From Variovorax sp. 54 (GTDB lineage: Bacteria; Pseudomonadota; Gammaproteobacteria; Burkholderiales; Burkholderiaceae_C): a stretch of 64,000 bases of DNA. The notes under the pieces are model-generated. The model ran no database searches. It was not told the DNA's origin and saw only the letters and a program-made list of their open reading frames with translations. Positions 9,312-15,790 of the stretch are shown piece by piece. Made by a program: the position numbers and the translations under genes. The stretch covers positions 2,418,001 to 2,482,000 of the forward strand of contig NZ_PEFF01000001.1 of the NCBI RefSeq assembly GCF_002754375.1, in the 5' to 3' direction. How positions within the stretch are numbered: the first letter of the stretch is position 1; every line of letters starts with the position of its first letter.

Positions 9312-9926
9312 GTGTCCATCTACGAACTGAAACCGCGTTTCCAGGCCTTGCTGCGACCGCTCGTGGTCCGGCTGCATGCGATGGGCGTGACGGCCAACCA
9401 GGTGACGCTGGCGGCCTGCGCGGTGTCGGTCGGGCTCGGGCTCTGGCTGTTCTTCGCCGCGCCCTCTCTGGCCGCCTTCGGCCTGATCCCCGCTTGGATG
9501 TTCCTGCGCATGGCCTTCAACGCCATCGACGGCATGCTGGCGCGCGAACACCACCAGCAAAGCAAGCTGGGCGCCTTCCTCAACGAACTCACCGACGTGG
9601 TCTCCGACGCCGCGCTCTACCTTCCCTTCGTGCTCGTGGCGCCGTTCGCGCCGTTCTGGGTCGGCACGGTCATCGTGCTGGCCGGGCTGAGCGAATTCGC
9701 CGGCGCGCTGGGCCCGACGGTGGGCGCCTCGCGCCGCTACGACGGGCCGATGGGCAAGAGCGACCGGGCCTTCGTGTTCGGTGCGCTCGGGTTGTACGTG
9801 GCCCTCGGCGGGCCGCTGCCGGGCTGGACCGCCCTCCTGATGCCGCTCGTGGCTGCGCTGGTGGCCTGGACGGTCGTCAACCGCATCCGCCGCGCGCTGG
9901 CCGAGGCTGAAGCCCCCGCTGCCTGA
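9312..9926 (+). CDS. CDP-alcohol phosphatidyltransferase family protein, YnbA-like
   Basis: A 204-residue membrane enzyme expected to transfer a phosphatidyl group from a CDP-lipid to an alcohol. The family motif D-x2-DG-x2-AR-x8-G-x3-D-x3-D is present at 70-95 but with Asn at the first and third Asp positions (N70, D73, G74, A77, R78, G87, N91, D95). Hydrophobic segments follow around 100-120, 130 and 165-190. It heads a run of lipid genes, and the hydrolase/methyltransferase fusion 38 bases downstream is what E. coli carries near ynbA. The product lipid is unknown. Start ATG at 9312 follows a purine-rich stretch. Confidence 0.87.
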
Positions 9927-9964
9927 AACATCCCCACACACATAAGCAAAGAAGAACCTTCTTC

Positions 9965-11731
9965 ATGACCCTTTCCACACCCCGCGTCGCCGCCGAACAC
10001 CACTTCCGCACGCACGACGGCGAATCGCTGTTCTACCGCCACTGGCCGGCCACCAGCGGTACCCGGCGCGGTGCCGTGCTGCTGTTCCACCGCGGCCATG
10101 AGCACGGCGCGCGCATGGCGCACCTGGTCGACGAGCTGAACCTGCCCGACTTCGACTTCTTCGCCTGGGACGCGCGCGGCCACGGCCGCTCGCCGGGCCC
10201 GCGCGGCTACAGCCCCAGCTTCGGCACCTCGGTGCGCGACGTGCAGACCTTCGTGCAGCACATCGGCAGCGCGCACGGCGTGCCCGAGCACGACATCCAC
10301 GTGGTCGCGCAGAGCGTCGGCGCGGTGCTCATCGCCACCTGGGCGCACGACTACGCCCCCAAGGTGCGCGGCCTCACGCTGGCCTCGCCGGCCTTCAAGG
10401 TCAAGCTCTACGTGCCGTTCGCGCGGCCGGGGCTGGCGCTCATGCACAAGCTGCGCGGGCTGTTCTTCGTGAACAGCTACGTGAAGCCGAAGTTCCTCAC
10501 GCACGACCCCGAGCGCATCGAGAGCTACAAGAATGACCCGCTGATCTCGCGCCCCATTGCCGTCAACATCCTGCTGGGCCTGTACGAGGCGGCCGACCGC
10601 GTGGTGGCCGACGCCAACGCGATCACGCTGCCGGTGCAGCTGCTCATTTCGGGCGCCGACTGGGTGGTGCACCACAAGCCGCAGCACCAGTTCTTCGACC
10701 GGCTGGGCAGCGTCGTGAAGACGAAGACGGTGCTGCCGGGCTTCTTCCACGACACGCTGGGCGAGAAAGACCGGGCGCCCGCGGTGGCGTCGATCCGCGA
10801 ATTCATCCTGCAGCGCTTCGACGAGCCGGCCGTGCCGGTCGACCTGCGCGAAGCGCACCTGAGCGGCCACACGGCCGACGAATCGCGTGCGCTGGCCGAA
10901 CCGCTCTCGCCACTGTCGCCGCGCGGCGCCTACTGGGCCATGACGCGCGGCGGGCTGCGCGTGGGCGGTGCGATGTCCAGCGGCGTGGCGCTGGGCCACG
11001 CCACCGGCTTCGACTCGGGCAGCACGCTCGACTACGTCTACCGCAACCAGCCGCAGGGCAAGGGCGCGCTGGGCCGTTCGGTCGACCGCACCTACCTCGA
11101 CTCCATCGGCTGGCGCGGCATCCGCCAGCGCAAGGTCCACGTCGAAGAGTTGCTGCGCATCGCGATGGAGCGGCTGGTCGAGATGCACCGCGAGGTGCGG
11201 CTCATGGACATCGCGGCCGGCCACGGCCGCTACGTGCTCGACGCGGTGCTGGCCAGCCCGGTGAAGGCCAGCTCGGTCCTGCTGCGCGACTACAGCGACA
11301 TCAACGTGCGCGACGGCACGGCCCTCATCGCCGAGAAGGGCCTGGAAGACATCGCCCAGTTCGTGCAGGCCGACGCCTTCGACCGCGTGAGCCTTGCCAG
11401 CGTGACGCCGCGGCCCACGCTGGCCGTGGTCTCGGGCCTGTACGAGCTGTTTCCCGACAACGAGATGGTGCGCCGCTCGCTCGCGGGCGTGGGCGACGCG
11501 GTGGAAGACCGGGGCTACCTGGTCTACACCGGCCAGCCCTGGCACCCGCAGCTCGAAATGATCGCCCGCGCGCTCACCAGCCACCGCCAGGGCGAAGCCT
11601 GGGTGATGCGCCGGCGCACGCAGGCCGAGATGGACCAGCTGGTCGAAGAGGCGGGCTTCCGCAAGATCGACCAGCGCGTCGACGAGTGGGGGATCTTCAC
11701 GGTGTCGCTGGCGGTGCGCGTCGCGCAATGA
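9965..11731 (+). CDS. Alpha/beta hydrolase fused to a SAM-dependent methyltransferase, YnbC-like
   Basis: A 588-residue fusion. Residues 1-290 form an alpha/beta hydrolase of the monoacylglycerol-lipase type (FHRGHEHGARMAHLVDEL, WDARGHGRS, and nucleophile elbow AQSVG with Ser117, its first Gly replaced by Ala). Residues from about 390 to the end are a class I methyltransferase with motif I DIAAGHGRY (415-423). The same fusion is known in E. coli YnbC. It lies in a lipid operon between the phosphatidyltransferase and the PAP2/phosphatase fusion, so it probably deacylates and methylates a lipid intermediate; that is inference. Its TGA overlaps the next ATG. Confidence 0.87.
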   Translation: MTLSTPRVAAEHHFRTHDGESLFYRHWPATSGTRRGAVLLFHRGHEHGARMAHLVDELNLPDFDFFAWDARGHGRSPGPRGYSPSFGTSVRDVQTFVQHIGSAHGVPEHDIHVVAQSVGAVLIATWAHDYAPKVRGLTLASPAFKVKLYVPFARPGLALMHKLRGLFFVNSYVKPKFLTHDPERIESYKNDPLISRPIAVNILLGLYEAADRVVADANAITLPVQLLISGADWVVHHKPQHQFFDRLGSVVKTKTVLPGFFHDTLGEKDRAPAVASIREFILQRFDEPAVPVDLREAHLSGHTADESRALAEPLSPLSPRGAYWAMTRGGLRVGGAMSSGVALGHATGFDSGSTLDYVYRNQPQGKGALGRSVDRTYLDSIGWRGIRQRKVHVEELLRIAMERLVEMHREVRLMDIAAGHGRYVLDAVLASPVKASSVLLRDYSDINVRDGTALIAEKGLEDIAQFVQADAFDRVSLASVTPRPTLAVVSGLYELFPDNEMVRRSLAGVGDAVEDRGYLVYTGQPWHPQLEMIARALTSHRQGEAWVMRRRTQAEMDQLVEEAGFRKIDQRVDEWGIFTVSLAVRVAQ

Positions 11732-13068
11732 GCGCCCGGCTGGCGCCCCGGCCTTGGAAACGCGCCGCCGCGTGGCTGGTGTTCCTGGGGCCGCTGTTCT
11801 ACGCCACCTACGGCTTCGCCAACTGGTGGGCCACCACGCGCGCCAGCGTGCCCTCGATGGCCTTCGACTGGGAGCGGCAGGTGCCTTTCTGGGCCTGGAC
11901 GATCTTTCCGTACTGGACCATCAACGTCTTCTACGCGCTGTCGCTGTTCCTGGCGCGCGACCGCCACACGCTCGACCGGCATGCGCTGCGGCTCGTGAGC
12001 GCCACGCTCATCGCCTGCACCTGCTTCATCTTCTGGCCGCTGCACTTCAGCTTCGGCCAGCCGCCGGTGGAGGGCGCACCGGCCTTCCTGTTCAATGCGC
12101 TGCGCGGCTTCGACCAGCCGTACAACCAGGCGCCCTCGCTGCACATCGCGCTGGCCGTGATCCTGTGGGACTGGTACCGGCGCTTCATCCGGCCGCTGTG
12201 GGCGCGGCTCGTGCTGCATGTGTGGGCCTTCGCGATCTGCGCTTCGGTGCTCACGACCTGGCAGCACCACTTCATCGACGTTCCAACCGGCGCGCTGCTC
12301 GGCATCTTCTGCGTGTGGCTGTGGCCGATGGCGCGACGGGTGTCGATGCTGCGCGCGTGGCGCCTCGCGCGCGATCCGCAGCGGCTGAAGCTCGCGGGCT
12401 TCTATGCCGTGGGCGCGGCGCTGTGCCTGTTCGCGGCGCTGGCGACGGGTGGCGTGGTGTTGTGGCTCGCGTGGCCGGCGGCAGCACTCGTGCTGGTGGC
12501 GCTCAACTACCTCGGCTTCGGCGCGCGCGGCTTCCAGATGGACGGCCACGGCCGCATGGGCTGGGCGGCGCGCTGGCTGTTGGCGCCCTACCGCCTGGGC
12601 GCGGCTTTCAATGTGTGGCTCTGGACACGCAAGCTGCCCGCCTCGGTCGAGGTGGTGCCGGGCCTGCGCCTGGGCCGTCGCCCCACGCAGGCCGAATGGC
12701 TGGCCGCCGGCCAGCCCCGGCTCGTGAGCCTGTGCGCCGAGCTGCAACTGCCGGCCGGCGTGCCGCCCACCCATGCGCGCTGCGTGCCGCTGCTCGACCT
12801 CGTGGTGCCGCCGCCCGTGCGCCTGCGCCGCGCCGCGGCCGTCATCGAAGGCCAGCGCCGCGCGGCGCTGGCCGACGGCTCGGCCGTGTGGGTCTGCTGC
12901 GCCCTGGGCTTCTCGCGCAGCGCCGCCGCCGTGATCGCCTGGCTGGGCCGCGACCATGGCCTGGCGCAGGCCGAAGACACCGTGCGCCGTGCACGCCCGC
13001 AGATCGTGCTGCGCGCCGCCTGGCGTGCCGCACTCGAACCCCTTGGAACACCTTCGCGCCATGACTGA
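11728..13068 (+). CDS. PAP2 membrane phosphatase fused to a dual-specificity phosphatase, YnbD-like
   Basis: A 446-residue membrane protein. The N-terminal part is a PAP2/inositolphosphorylceramide-synthase-like domain with PSLHIAL (C2) and TWQHHFIDVPTG (C3). The C-terminal 130 residues are a tyrosine/dual-specificity phosphatase with the P-loop C391-ALGFS-R397; the residue before the catalytic Cys is Cys390 rather than the usual His. The pairing suggests removal of a phosphate from a phosphatidyl-alcohol phosphate made by the operon's transferase. The start ATG at 11728 overlaps the previous stop (ATGA), implying coupled translation. Confidence 0.87.
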   Translation: MSARLAPRPWKRAAAWLVFLGPLFYATYGFANWWATTRASVPSMAFDWERQVPFWAWTIFPYWTINVFYALSLFLARDRHTLDRHALRLVSATLIACTCFIFWPLHFSFGQPPVEGAPAFLFNALRGFDQPYNQAPSLHIALAVILWDWYRRFIRPLWARLVLHVWAFAICASVLTTWQHHFIDVPTGALLGIFCVWLWPMARRVSMLRAWRLARDPQRLKLAGFYAVGAALCLFAALATGGVVLWLAWPAAALVLVALNYLGFGARGFQMDGHGRMGWAARWLLAPYRLGAAFNVWLWTRKLPASVEVVPGLRLGRRPTQAEWLAAGQPRLVSLCAELQLPAGVPPTHARCVPLLDLVVPPPVRLRRAAAVIEGQRRAALADGSAVWVCCALGFSRSAAAVIAWLGRDHGLAQAEDTVRRARPQIVLRAAWRAALEPLGTPSRHD

Positions 13069-13501
13069 CAACGAACGCGCCACCTGCACCGCCCTGGCCG
13101 GCCTGCTGCGCGCGGCGGCCGTGCTCGCCTTCCTGGGCCTCGCGCTCACCTGCATCGCCGCGCTGGTGCTGGCGCTCACGCTGCGCGGGCTGTCGAACAC
13201 CGCCATCCTGGCCTTTGCCGCGGTGATGGTGCTGGGCGTGATCGAACGCTACTTCGCCTTCCGGCTGCGGCTGGACCAGGCGCTGTTCGAAGGCCTGGCC
13301 AACGGCCAGATCGCCTCGCTGGGCGCGCTGGACAACGCGCTCTCCGTGCTCGGGCTGCGCGACCCGCCGCCCCACCCCAGCGCCCGCGCGCTCGCCGACC
13401 GCGTGCAGGGAACCCGCCAACTGATGCAGCGCCACGCCATCGTGATCGCCGGCCAGAACGCGCTCTTCCTGCTCGCCCTCATGACACAGGAAATCGCTTG
13501 A
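13061..13501 (+). CDS. Small two-helix membrane protein of unknown function in the lipid operon
   Basis: A 146-residue protein that I do not recognise. It has two hydrophobic segments in its first half (LLRAAAVLAFLGLALTCIAA and NTAILAFAAVMVLGVIERYF), then a soluble helical stretch (DQALFEGLANGQIASLGALD) and a final hydrophobic helix (HAIVIAGQNALFLLALM). The ATG at 13061 overlaps the upstream gene by 8 bases, and its own stop overlaps the TTG start of the acyltransferase, so it is translated as part of the lipid operon. It could be a scaffold or accessory subunit of one of the membrane enzymes. Confidence 0.75.
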   Translation: MTDNERATCTALAGLLRAAAVLAFLGLALTCIAALVLALTLRGLSNTAILAFAAVMVLGVIERYFAFRLRLDQALFEGLANGQIASLGALDNALSVLGLRDPPPHPSARALADRVQGTRQLMQRHAIVIAGQNALFLLALMTQEIA

Positions 13502-14226
13502 ACAACGACAACGGCAACAACAAGAACGACAGCAGCGACGACAGCGCCCGGCCCAGTGCCATCGTGCGCCGCGGCCTCGCGGTGGTGGCGGGCCAGCTCA
13601 TCATCGGCGCGGCCGGCCTGCTGACCGGCGTGCGCGCCCTCTGGTCGGGCACCACGCCCAAGGCCGAGCAGACGCTGTACTTCGCCAACCACACGAGCCA
13701 CGGCGACTTCGTGCTGCTGTGGGCCACGCTGCCCTCCGACCTGCGCGCGCTCACGCGGCCCGTGGCCGGGCAGGACTACTGGGAGGCCTCGAAGCTGCGC
13801 AACTTCATCGGCAAGGACGTGTTCAATGCGCTCATGATCCGCCGCGACGGCTCGGGCCAGGGCGGCAACCCGGTCGACCAGATGAAGGAGGCGCTGGAAG
13901 GCGGCGACTCGCTCATCATGTTCCCCGAAGGCACGCGCAACACGGGCGACGACATCCTGCTGCCGCTCAAGAGCGGCCTCTTCCACCTGGCACGCGCCTG
14001 CCCCACCGTGCGGCTGGTGCCGGTGTGGATCGAGAACCTCAAACGCGTGCTGCCCAAGGGCACGCTGGTGCCGATTCCGCTGGCCTGCACGGTGCGCTTC
14101 GGCGCCCCGATCCAGCTCGAAGAAGGCGAAGACAAGGTCGCCTTTCTCGCCCGCGCACGCACCGCCATGCTCGACCTGCGCCCCGAGTACGACCGCATCG
14201 AACAAAACGGAGGGACCGCCTCGTGA
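13498..14226 (+). CDS. 1-acyl-sn-glycerol-3-phosphate acyltransferase (PlsC-like)
   Basis: A 242-residue LPLAT-superfamily acyltransferase. The catalytic HX4D box is NHTSHGD, and the FPEGTRNTG block binds the phosphate of the acceptor. An N-terminal hydrophobic segment (VVAGQLIIGAAGLLTGV) anchors it to the membrane after an Asn/Asp-rich leader. The start is TTG overlapping the previous stop as TTGA, and the gene ends overlapping the next GTG start. The expected reaction is acylation of a lysophosphatidate-type acceptor, supplying the substrate for the cytidylyltransferase encoded next. Confidence 0.88.
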   Translation: MNNDNGNNKNDSSDDSARPSAIVRRGLAVVAGQLIIGAAGLLTGVRALWSGTTPKAEQTLYFANHTSHGDFVLLWATLPSDLRALTRPVAGQDYWEASKLRNFIGKDVFNALMIRRDGSGQGGNPVDQMKEALEGGDSLIMFPEGTRNTGDDILLPLKSGLFHLARACPTVRLVPVWIENLKRVLPKGTLVPIPLACTVRFGAPIQLEEGEDKVAFLARARTAMLDLRPEYDRIEQNGGTAS

Positions 14227-15179
14227 TCGAACTCTCTCCCTTCGCCTGGACCACCTTCAAGCTCTTCGGCGGCGTCTTCGGCGTGCTGGTGCTGGCCTCT
14301 TCGATCGGCGCGCTGCTCAAGTGGCGCGTGGCGCACGGCCAGCCGCACTCGGTGATCGACAACCTCAACTCGCGCGTCAACGCGTGGTGGGTGATGGTGG
14401 CAGTGATCGGCCTGGCCTTTGCCTTCGGCAAGGGCGGCGTGATCGTGCTGTTCTACCTGATCTCGTTCTATGCGCTGCGCGAGTTCATCAGCCTGGCCTA
14501 CACGCGGCGCGGCGACCACGGCGCCATCGCGCTGGCCTTCTTCGTCGCGCTGCCGGGCCAGTACTTCCTGATCTGGATCGACTGGTACGGGCTGTACTCG
14601 ATCTACATCCCGGTCTACGCCTTCCTGCTGCTGCCCATCCTGGCGGCCGTGGGCGGCGACACGCAGCGCTTTCTCGAACGCACCTCGAAGATCCAGTGGG
14701 GCCTGATGGTGTGCGTGTTCTGCATCAGCCACGTGCCGGCGCTGCTCACGCTGCAGATCCCGGGCTTCGAGGGCCGCAACCTGCTGCTGATCGCGTTCCT
14801 CGTCATCGTGGTGCAGGGCAGCGACGTGCTGCAGTACGTGTGGGGCAAGCTCTTCGGCAAACGCAAGGTGGCGCCCGAACTCTCGCCTTCCAAGACCTGG
14901 GAAGGCCTGATCGGCGGTGTGGCCAGCGCCACCGCGATGGGCGCGGCGCTGTACTGGGCCACGCCCTTCAACCCGTGGCAGGCCGCGCTCATGGCCTTCA
15001 TGATCTGCCTCCTGGGCTTCTTCGGCGGGCTCGTGATGTCGGCCATCAAGCGCGACCGCGGCGTGAAAGACTGGGGCTCCATGATCGAAGGCCACGGCGG
15101 CATGCTCGACCGGCTCGACTCGGTGATCTTCGCGGCGCCGATCTACTTCCACGCGCTGCGCTACTGGTGGGTGCCGTGA
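14223..15179 (+). CDS. Phosphatidate cytidylyltransferase (CDP-diglyceride synthase), YnbB-like
   Basis: A 318-residue polytopic membrane enzyme with the full CdsA signature near its C-terminus (SAIKRDRGVKDWG, then EGHGGMLDRLDS) and SPSKTWEGLIGG upstream of it. It should form CDP-diacylglycerol from CTP and phosphatidate, the donor for the phosphatidyltransferase at the operon's start. The GTG start at 14223 overlaps the acyltransferase stop. A housekeeping cdsA is presumably elsewhere in the genome, so this copy looks dedicated to the operon; that is an inference. Confidence 0.92.
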   Translation: MIELSPFAWTTFKLFGGVFGVLVLASSIGALLKWRVAHGQPHSVIDNLNSRVNAWWVMVAVIGLAFAFGKGGVIVLFYLISFYALREFISLAYTRRGDHGAIALAFFVALPGQYFLIWIDWYGLYSIYIPVYAFLLLPILAAVGGDTQRFLERTSKIQWGLMVCVFCISHVPALLTLQIPGFEGRNLLLIAFLVIVVQGSDVLQYVWGKLFGKRKVAPELSPSKTWEGLIGGVASATAMGAALYWATPFNPWQAALMAFMICLLGFFGGLVMSAIKRDRGVKDWGSMIEGHGGMLDRLDSVIFAAPIYFHALRYWWVP

Positions 15180-15790
15180 GCCCGGCGGCGAAGAAGACAG
15201 CGGTCAAGGTGGACCGCATCGTCGACGACACGCCGCTGGAATGCACCAACGCGGCGGAGCTGCTGCGTTGGTACAAGAAACACCATGCGAGCCACGCCGG
15301 CGTCTGGCTGCGCATCGCGAAGAAGGCCAGCGGCATCGCGTCCGTCGACCACCCCGAGGCGCTGGAGATCGCGCTGTGCTTCGGCTGGATCGACGGCCAG
15401 CGCAAGAGCCAGGACGCGCAGTTCTTTTTGCAGCGCTTCACGCCGCGCACCGCGCGCAGCATCTGGTCGAAGATCAACCGCGACAAGGTGCTGAAGCTCA
15501 TCGACGACGGCCGCATGCAGGCCGGCGGCCTGGCCGAGGTGGAGCGCGCCCGCGCCGACGGCCGCTGGGCCGCGGCCTACGACGCCGCGAGCGTGGCGAC
15601 CGTGCCCCCCGACCTGCAGGCCGCGCTCGATGCGAACCGCACCGCCAAGGCCTTCTTCGCCACGCTCGATGCGCGCAACCGCTATGCGGTGCTGTTCCGC
15701 ACGCAGGGCGCGAAGAAGCCCGAGACGCGCGCCCGTCGCATCGCGCAGTTCGTCGAGATGCTCGCCAAGGGCGAGAAGATCCACCCCTGA
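15176..15790 (+). CDS. YdeI/OmpD-associated (OmdA) family protein
   Basis: A 204-residue soluble protein of the YdeI/OmdA family, recognised by ELLRWYKKHHASHAGVWLRI, IALCFGWIDGQRK, QRFTPRTARSIWSKIN and a C-terminal helical repeat ending in TRARRIAQFVEMLAKGEKI. Relatives are described as bacteriocin-protection or OmpD-associated proteins, but their biochemistry is unclear. The GTG start at 15176 overlaps the CdsA-like stop as GTGA, so it is the last gene of the lipid operon, although it may have no lipid role. Confidence 0.85.
   Translation: MSPAAKKTAVKVDRIVDDTPLECTNAAELLRWYKKHHASHAGVWLRIAKKASGIASVDHPEALEIALCFGWIDGQRKSQDAQFFLQRFTPRTARSIWSKINRDKVLKLIDDGRMQAGGLAEVERARADGRWAAAYDAASVATVPPDLQAALDANRTAKAFFATLDARNRYAVLFRTQGAKKPETRARRIAQFVEMLAKGEKIHP

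What the first reader, a model, noticed from the sequence alone, without database searches (positions are those of the whole stretch)
9312..15790. Extended Ynb-like phospholipid operon encoding a near-complete lipid-head-group pathway
Seven overlapping plus-strand genes encode a CDP-alcohol phosphatidyltransferase, a hydrolase/methyltransferase fusion, a PAP2/dual-specificity phosphatase fusion, a small membrane protein, a PlsC-like acyltransferase, a CDP-diglyceride synthase and a YdeI-family protein. The four fused or membrane types match E. coli ynbABCD, whose product is, to my knowledge, not defined. Here an acyltransferase and an unknown membrane protein are added, so the operon could make phosphatidate, activate it, transfer it to an alcohol phosphate, dephosphorylate and then methylate or trim it. 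That route is inferred from enzyme types alone.
Basis: partly seen in the sequence, partly recalled or inferred. Interest (0 to 1): 0.78.

Follow-up and report, generated by a model that had tools for sequence, protein, structure and literature searches.

The report
Minor-phospholipid operon with unusual headgroup enzyme
A conserved bacterial gene cluster, present in a shortened form in E. coli, looks like a private pathway for a minor membrane lipid, and its head-group enzyme carries an unusual substitution in the metal site of its family that goes with having its own lipid-activating partner genes.

Summary
The seven genes are real and lie where stated, in a Variovorax genome. Four are homologues of E. 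coli YnbA, B, C and D (47, 39, 57 and 37% identity). The interpretation needs correcting. The order A-C-D-M-P-B (M, small membrane protein; P, PlsC-like) was found in 81 of 86 loci with complete neighbourhoods, so this is the common form and E. coli ynbABCD the reduced one. The YdeI gene is a neighbour seen only in Variovorax. The main new result concerns YnbA: it has the fold of phosphatidylinositol-phosphate synthases, but the first and third aspartates of the family signature are asparagine in 36 of 36 aligned homologues, E. coli included. In a tree these asparagine-type enzymes form one clade. Loci outside ynbC operons still mostly have CdsA-like and PlsC-like genes nearby (14 of 16), the next ten aspartate-type relatives do not (0 of 10). 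Best reading: an acyltransferase, CDP-lipid synthase and head-group transferase module for a minor phospholipid, finished by a two-domain phosphatase and a hydrolase/methyltransferase. The product is unknown. Published work found concerns YnbB, which makes CDP-diacylglycerol in vitro and was linked to the glycolipid MPIase.

The parts
9312..9926 (+). A: YnbA-like CDP-alcohol phosphatidyltransferase-fold protein, 204 aa, GTG start; motif N70-x2-D73-G-x2-A77-R78-x8-G87-x3-N91-x3-D95
   Evidence: 47% to E. coli YnbA; invariant columns; model and fold matches
9965..11731 (+). C: YnbC-like fusion, PldB/serine-hydrolase type domain (S117, D232, H262) plus SAM-methyltransferase-type domain PF12147, 588 aa
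   Evidence: 57% to E. coli YnbC; S117, D232, H262 and D415-x-A-A-G-H-G-R invariant in 98 sequences
11728..13068 (+). D: YnbD-like fusion, PAP2-type membrane domain (P136-S-L-H139, H180-x3-D184) plus dual-specificity phosphatase domain (D357, C391-x5-R397), 446 aa
   Evidence: (37% to E. coli YnbD)
13061..13501 (+). M: small hydrophobic protein of unknown family, 146 aa, conserved between D and P
   Evidence: no Pfam family above cut-off in seven members; 319 homologues, 120 listed; profile finds it in 87 of 97 loci; not in E. coli
13498..14226 (+). P: PlsC-like acyltransferase, 242 aa, TTG start; H65-x4-D70 and F142-PEGTR147
   Evidence: motifs invariant in 87 sequences
14223..15179 (+). B: YnbB/CdsA-like CTP transferase, 318 aa, GTG start; K276-R-D...K282-D283...G290-H-G-G...D296-R
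   Evidence: 39% to E. coli YnbB; motif invariant in 88 sequences
15176..15790 (+). Y: YdeI/OmdA-family protein (PF13376), GTG start; downstream neighbour seen only in Variovorax loci, probably not part of the pathway

Best explanation
The operon encodes a dedicated pathway for a minor glycerophospholipid, parallel to the bulk pathway. P acylates a lipid phosphate, B activates it with CTP to a CDP-lipid (CDP-diacylglycerol or something close to it), and A moves the lipid-phosphate onto an acceptor that probably bears a phosphate or another anion. The phosphatase half of D then removes an exposed phosphate, and C trims and/or methylates the product. The PAP2-type half of D keeps the catalytic His/His/Asp but not the usual Lys and Arg, so I expect it to act on a phosphodiester, as a head-group transferase or lipase, rather than on a phosphomonoester. 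M is an accessory membrane protein. A, P and B are the core; C, D and M are the usual additions. Shown: gene order, families, active-site motifs, fold of A and of the DSP half of D (models), the Asn substitutions, and the A+P+B association. Inferred: the substrates and the order of steps.
Against: No substrate or product is known. A lacks two of the three aspartates that hold the metals, so normal catalysis is not assured. MtPgsA1 R94, reported as conserved in enzymes using inositol phosphate, is V/I/L/M in A, and K135 and S132 are Gly (Ala at 134 in 2 of 36), so the acceptor is probably not inositol phosphate. I saw no recurring head-group-making gene next to the operon (reading by eye). E. 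coli lacks P and M in the cluster. P falls below the curated cut-off for 1-acylglycerol-3-phosphate acyltransferase (44.4 against 102.95 bits). A ynbB knockout of E. coli showed no defect in phospholipid or MPIase (PMC7018664).
Confidence: 0.52

Rival explanations
1. A is a pseudoenzyme. With two metal ligands lost it no longer transfers head groups but binds or presents the CDP-lipid made by B, as a scaffold or lipid-handling partner; the lipid product is made by B, C and D.
For: N at positions 1 and 3 of the signature in 36 of 36. Nine of the 16 Asn-type loci outside ynbC operons have also lost the Arg of 'AR' (V, M or I). In MtPgsA1 the fourth Asp (D93) to Asn almost abolishes activity (PMC4634129, passages).
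Against: In the ynb branch D73, G74, A77, R78, G87 and the presumed base D95 are invariant, as are R152 and R191, which is more than a scaffold would need. Asn can ligate metals (general chemistry, not tested here).
Confidence: 0.2
2. The operon serves the MPIase type of lipid: B makes CDP-diacylglycerol and A or B puts it on a sugar 1-phosphate, giving a pyrophosphate-linked glycolipid (GlcNAc-PP-DAG).
For: E. coli YnbB overproduction raised MPIase (PMC6362211, passages) and restored MPIase but not phospholipids when CdsA was depleted; YnbB makes CDP-DAG in vitro (PMC7018664, passages). CdsA and YnbB were reported to be involved in making GlcNAc-PP-DAG (PMC10881803, passages). A phosphate nucleophile would fit a less acidic metal site (inference).
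Against: Deleting ynbB did not change the MPIase level significantly (PMC6362211; PMC7018664). YnbA is not mentioned in either paper (0 occurrences). The phosphatase, hydrolase and methyltransferase have no place in that route.
Confidence: 0.14
3. It is simply a second route to phosphatidylglycerol (PlsC, CdsA, PGP synthase, PGP phosphatase), used under certain conditions.
For: The enzyme types and the DSP half (PTPMT1-like fold; PTPMT1 as PGP phosphatase is recalled) fit.
Confidence: 0.12

Closest known systems
E. coli ynbABCD (b1408-b1411)
   Same: Four homologous genes in one cluster with the same domain make-up, including N,N in YnbA
   Different: E. coli order is A-B-C-D and lacks M and P in the cluster; the common form is A-C-D-M-P-B
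Phosphatidylinositol-phosphate synthase of mycobacteria and Renibacterium (class I CDP-alcohol phosphotransferase)
   Different: D1 and D3 are Asn; R94, K135 and S132 replaced by V/I/L/M, G/A and G; below NCBIfam cut-off (48.1 against 170 bits)
Archaetidylinositol phosphate synthase (NF040950)
   Same: Best NCBIfam match of A (73.6 bits)
   Different: Cut-off is 180 bits; A has Asn at two signature positions
CdsA, housekeeping CDP-diacylglycerol synthase
   Same: PF01148 domain and C-terminal signature; E. coli YnbB makes CDP-DAG in vitro (PMC7018664)
   Different: E. coli YnbB does not replace CdsA for phospholipids (PMC6362211; PMC7018664)

Membership tests
ynb gene cluster (YnbA, YnbB, YnbC, YnbD homologues together) | All four families in one cluster, near full-length similarity to the E. 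coli proteins | tested here: met
Class I CDP-alcohol phosphotransferase (gene A) | Family profile and fold | tested here: met
Class I CDP-alcohol phosphotransferase (gene A) | Signature D1xxD2GxxAR...GxxxD3xxxD4 with four Asp (as given in PMC4634129) | tested here: not met
   N-x2-D-G-x2-A-R-x8-G-x3-N-x3-D in 36 of 36; the other three CDP-OH transferases found in the same genome have all four Asp
PIP synthase using inositol phosphate (gene A) | R155 and R195 (acceptor phosphate) | tested here: met
   R152 and R191 invariant in 36 of 36. R195 matches R191 as aligned; R155 matches R152 only after I shifted the HMMER alignment by one residue
PIP synthase using inositol phosphate (gene A) | R94, K135, S132 of the acceptor pocket | tested here: not met
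   V/I/L/M at 96, G (34 of 36) or A at 134, G at 131
CDP-lipid synthase, CdsA/YnbB (gene B) | PF01148 over cut-off and C-terminal S..KR..KD...GHGG..DR motif | tested here: met
   235 bits; residues invariant in 88 sequences; motif wording is recalled
1-acylglycerol-3-phosphate acyltransferase, PlsC (gene P) | HX4D and EGTR motifs | tested here: met
   invariant in 87 sequences; motifs recalled
1-acylglycerol-3-phosphate acyltransferase, PlsC (gene P) | Curated cut-off of TIGR00530 | tested here: not met
   44.4 against 102.95 bits; so PlsC-like only
PAP2 phosphatase (gene D, N-terminal half) | C2 PSxH and C3 H-x3-D | tested here: met
   P136-S-L-H139 and H180-x3-D184 in 37 of 37; motif definitions are recalled
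PAP2 phosphatase (gene D, N-terminal half) | C1 Lys (KX6RP) and C3 Arg (SRX5H) | tested here: not met
   P at 104 in 37 of 37; V (36) or T (1) at 174; motif definitions are recalled
PAP2 phosphatase (gene D, N-terminal half) | PAP2 fold | tested here: inconclusive
   structure search was filled by the DSP half; Pfam PAP2 27.3 against 27.2 bits
Dual-specificity phosphatase (gene D, C-terminal half) | Cys-x5-Arg and general-acid Asp, DSP fold | tested here: met
YnbC hydrolase/methyltransferase (gene C) | PF12146 and PF12147 over cut-off, Ser/Asp/His, SAM motif | tested here: met

The most novel reading that the evidence does not exclude
The Asn-type CDP-alcohol transferases are a separate enzyme class with a rebuilt metal site. 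They are fed by their own acyltransferase and CDP-lipid synthase with a channelled or modified CDP-lipid, or use a nucleophile other than a plain hydroxyl, and form a second phospholipid-making module in Proteobacteria of which E. coli carries a reduced copy.
Probability: 0.25. Interest if true: 0.82.

Novelty: new variant of a known kind. Interest (0 to 1): 0.58.

Why it matters
A ynbABCD stretch covering at least 80% of the K-12 one is in 4242 of 5426 complete E. coli genomes, and I found no paper that assigns the operon a product (a library that lacks most subscription journals). Placing it as the reduced form of a widespread module, with a defined core (A, P, B) and a sharp, testable oddity in the metal site of the head-group enzyme, turns an uncharacterised operon into a focused biochemical question. 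It also points to organisms with the fuller operon in which to look for the lipid.

Tried and rejected
Literature: ynbABCD gave 0 papers. Single ynb gene names gave 206 papers, 40 listed, most of those listed about media or markers with similar letters. Searches by enzyme names found nothing on this operon in their listings. 'YnbA' with 'phospholipid' listed four papers; two are Candida papers by title and were not opened, two are E. coli expression studies of which I read the passages. Passages were also read in PMC10652928 (ynbABCD stand in a long gene list whose meaning I did not establish) and PMC4951805 (ynbC and ynbD as landmarks). The BglJ-RcsB paper cited there is not held. The YnbB paper of Sato et al. 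2019 was not seen; what I say of it comes from a review.

Head group from neighbours: I looked through flanking genes of divergent loci (part of the first output was cut) and saw no recurring sugar- or polyol-phosphate gene. This was a reading by eye, not a clustering. One variant (A-B-P) has a VTT-domain-like protein next to it.

A first M profile drifted and gave a false hit in E. coli and a false order A-C-M-D-P-B. I rebuilt it with domain coordinates and stricter limits; that result is the one used.

An analogy to AUR1/sphingomyelin synthase is recalled, not tested.

One search parsed the YnbA motif in 98 loci (the window's own gene appears among them twice): 95 as N/D/AR/N/D, two misparsed because of a double glycine (read by eye as N and N), one not parsed.

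Rows dropped: one search offered 41 non-redundant A sequences and 39 D sequences; I gave 35 and 36 of them, plus the window's, to the alignments (36 rows; 37 rows), leaving out L054, L033, L043, L047, L070, L009 for A and L006, L025, L035 for D, by choice and without testing. The tree used 16 of the 36 A rows.

The 26 loci are the matches outside ynbC operons, from the top down to E = 3.4e-7, one locus per region (a second match in the G056 region was not read apart); further weaker matches were not read. In L153, L170 and L179 the stretch ends less than 4 kb from A on one side. The loci are related sequences, not independent trials.

Full report
What is there. The window lies in a Variovorax genome (nearest named loci: Variovorax sp. 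Root473 and V. boronicumulans NBRC 103145, both 97% identity in gene C; the genome is one contig of 6.64 Mb). On the plus strand seven genes run from 9312 to 15790. Five of six junctions overlap by 4 or 8 bp; A and C are 38 bp apart. The upstream gene reads as a RuvB homologue on the minus strand and the downstream gene as a Crp/Fnr-type regulator on the minus strand (both named by eye, not searched).

Identity of the genes. A, C, D and B are homologues of E. coli YnbA, YnbC, YnbD and YnbB (47, 57, 37 and 39%). P is a PlsC-like acyltransferase, below the curated cut-off for 1-acylglycerol-3-phosphate acyltransferase and with HX4D and FPEGTR intact. M has no Pfam family above cut-off in seven members tried. 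Y is YdeI/OmdA (PF13376).

Gene order. I examined 97 loci: 80 from named genomes, 16 from the other PF12147-bearing genomes of an even draw of 299 over the phylum and E. coli K-12. In 86 the neighbourhood is complete; 81 of these read A-C-D-M-P-B, 25 of them followed by Y, all 25 titled Variovorax. The five others are E. coli (A-B-C-D), two with A turned round and no P or B found (L114, L115), one A-C (L118) and one A-C-P-B (L119). Among the 11 set aside as cut short, three still show A-C-D-M-P-B and L071 reads B-P-A-C-D. So M and P are normal members and E. coli is the reduced form; Y is a local neighbour. The ynbC-type methyltransferase family PF12147 is patchy: 17 of 299 Pseudomonadota genomes, 27 of 37 genomes of the genus counting this one.

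The asparagine site. The CDP-alcohol phosphotransferase signature is D1xxD2GxxAR...GxxxD3xxxD4; the first three Asp hold metal and the fourth is the likely base (PMC4634129, passages read). In M. tuberculosis PgsA1 D68, D71 and D89 ligate Mg-1, while D89 and D93 belong to site 2 (PMC6506517, passages read). In gene A the first and third are Asn: N70, D73, N91, D95. All four columns are invariant in 36 of 36 aligned homologues, including E. coli. As an internal control, the three other CDP-OH transferases found in the same genome have all four Asp.

How far it goes. A profile of gene A was run over the 299 genomes. 25 genomes have a strong match (170 bits or more), among them all 17 with PF12147. 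I read the loci of the eight without it and of the weaker matches down to E = 3.4e-7, one per region, 26 loci in all. Sixteen lack Asp at both positions: 15 are N and N, one (L157) is A and N. Nine of the 16 (the eight weakest and L157) also lack the Arg of 'AR'. Ten are Asp and Asp. Fourteen of the 16 have both a B-type and a P-type gene within 4 kb (in L167 and L168 on the other strand from A; L156 has B only, L157 neither), against 0 of 10 Asp-type loci (L178 has a weak B-type match on the other strand). One-sided Fisher value by hand: 120/9657700, about 1.2e-5; the loci are related, so this is a guide only. In a FastTree tree of these, the three other CDP-OH transferases of this genome and 16 of the 36 ynb rows, the 32 Asn-type sequences (L157 counted with them) form one clade with no other member; local support 0.93 as read after rooting on L001. 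So the core unit is A+P+B, and C, D and M are additions found in the ynb branch.

What is known. E. coli YnbB overproduction raised the glycolipid MPIase; deleting ynbB did not change it significantly; YnbB did not replace CdsA (stated as data not shown) (PMC6362211, passages). A review reports from Sato et al. 2019 that YnbB makes CDP-DAG in vitro, restores MPIase but not phospholipids under CdsA depletion, that its knockout has no defect in either, and concludes that it is a backup for MPIase (PMC7018664, passages). A study of ECA found ynbB in a screen and states that it is not needed for ECA-PG synthesis (PMC8609368, passages). YnbA has 0 occurrences in these three. Two expression studies mention ynbA: 3.0-fold up with an acid-tolerance peptide, there called a predicted diacylglycerol cholinephosphotransferase and, citing other work, activated by BglJ-RcsB (PMC12871917), and among membrane-stress genes up with an antimicrobial peptide (PMC12811501). 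I found no paper that assigns a product to the operon; subscription journals are mostly not held in that library.

Verdict. A real, conserved, uncharacterised lipid operon. The strongest new point is the single clade of Asn-type CDP-alcohol transferases tied to a CDP-lipid synthase and acyltransferase of their own. What it makes cannot be told from sequence.

Noticed in passing
L165:5119-7255 (own genome C1, about 4.163-4.165 Mb): A second P-B-like pair; I saw no CDP-OH transferase motif in the 12-kb stretch around it. Its B-like protein has P-N where CdsA/YnbB have K-D and TGANG in place of GHGG, so it looks catalytically altered; its P-like protein has a proline-rich insertion.
   Followed up: partly
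L153:858-1397 and L152:10536-11219: In A-B-P variants without ynbC/D, the next gene is a small membrane protein; in L153 it matches the VTT domain (DedA type) at 29 bits, below the cut-off of 33.9; the L152 one, similar by eye, matched no family.
   Followed up: partly
L136 and L143 (G204, G110): the genome search reports one stop codon inside the A match in each; in the G110 stretch (L156) the B match is also partial, so that copy may be decaying.
   Followed up: no
G339 (same order), three places: One genome carries three PF12147 matches, one of them divergent (199 bits against 448 and 470).
   Followed up: no
window 12385-12954: Residues 220-409 of gene D match NCBIfam NF009025 (PRK12361), recalled as a DSP plus diacylglycerol-kinase fusion, at 47.8 bits, far below its cut-off of 505: the same membrane-plus-DSP unit may be joined to a lipid kinase elsewhere.
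   Followed up: no
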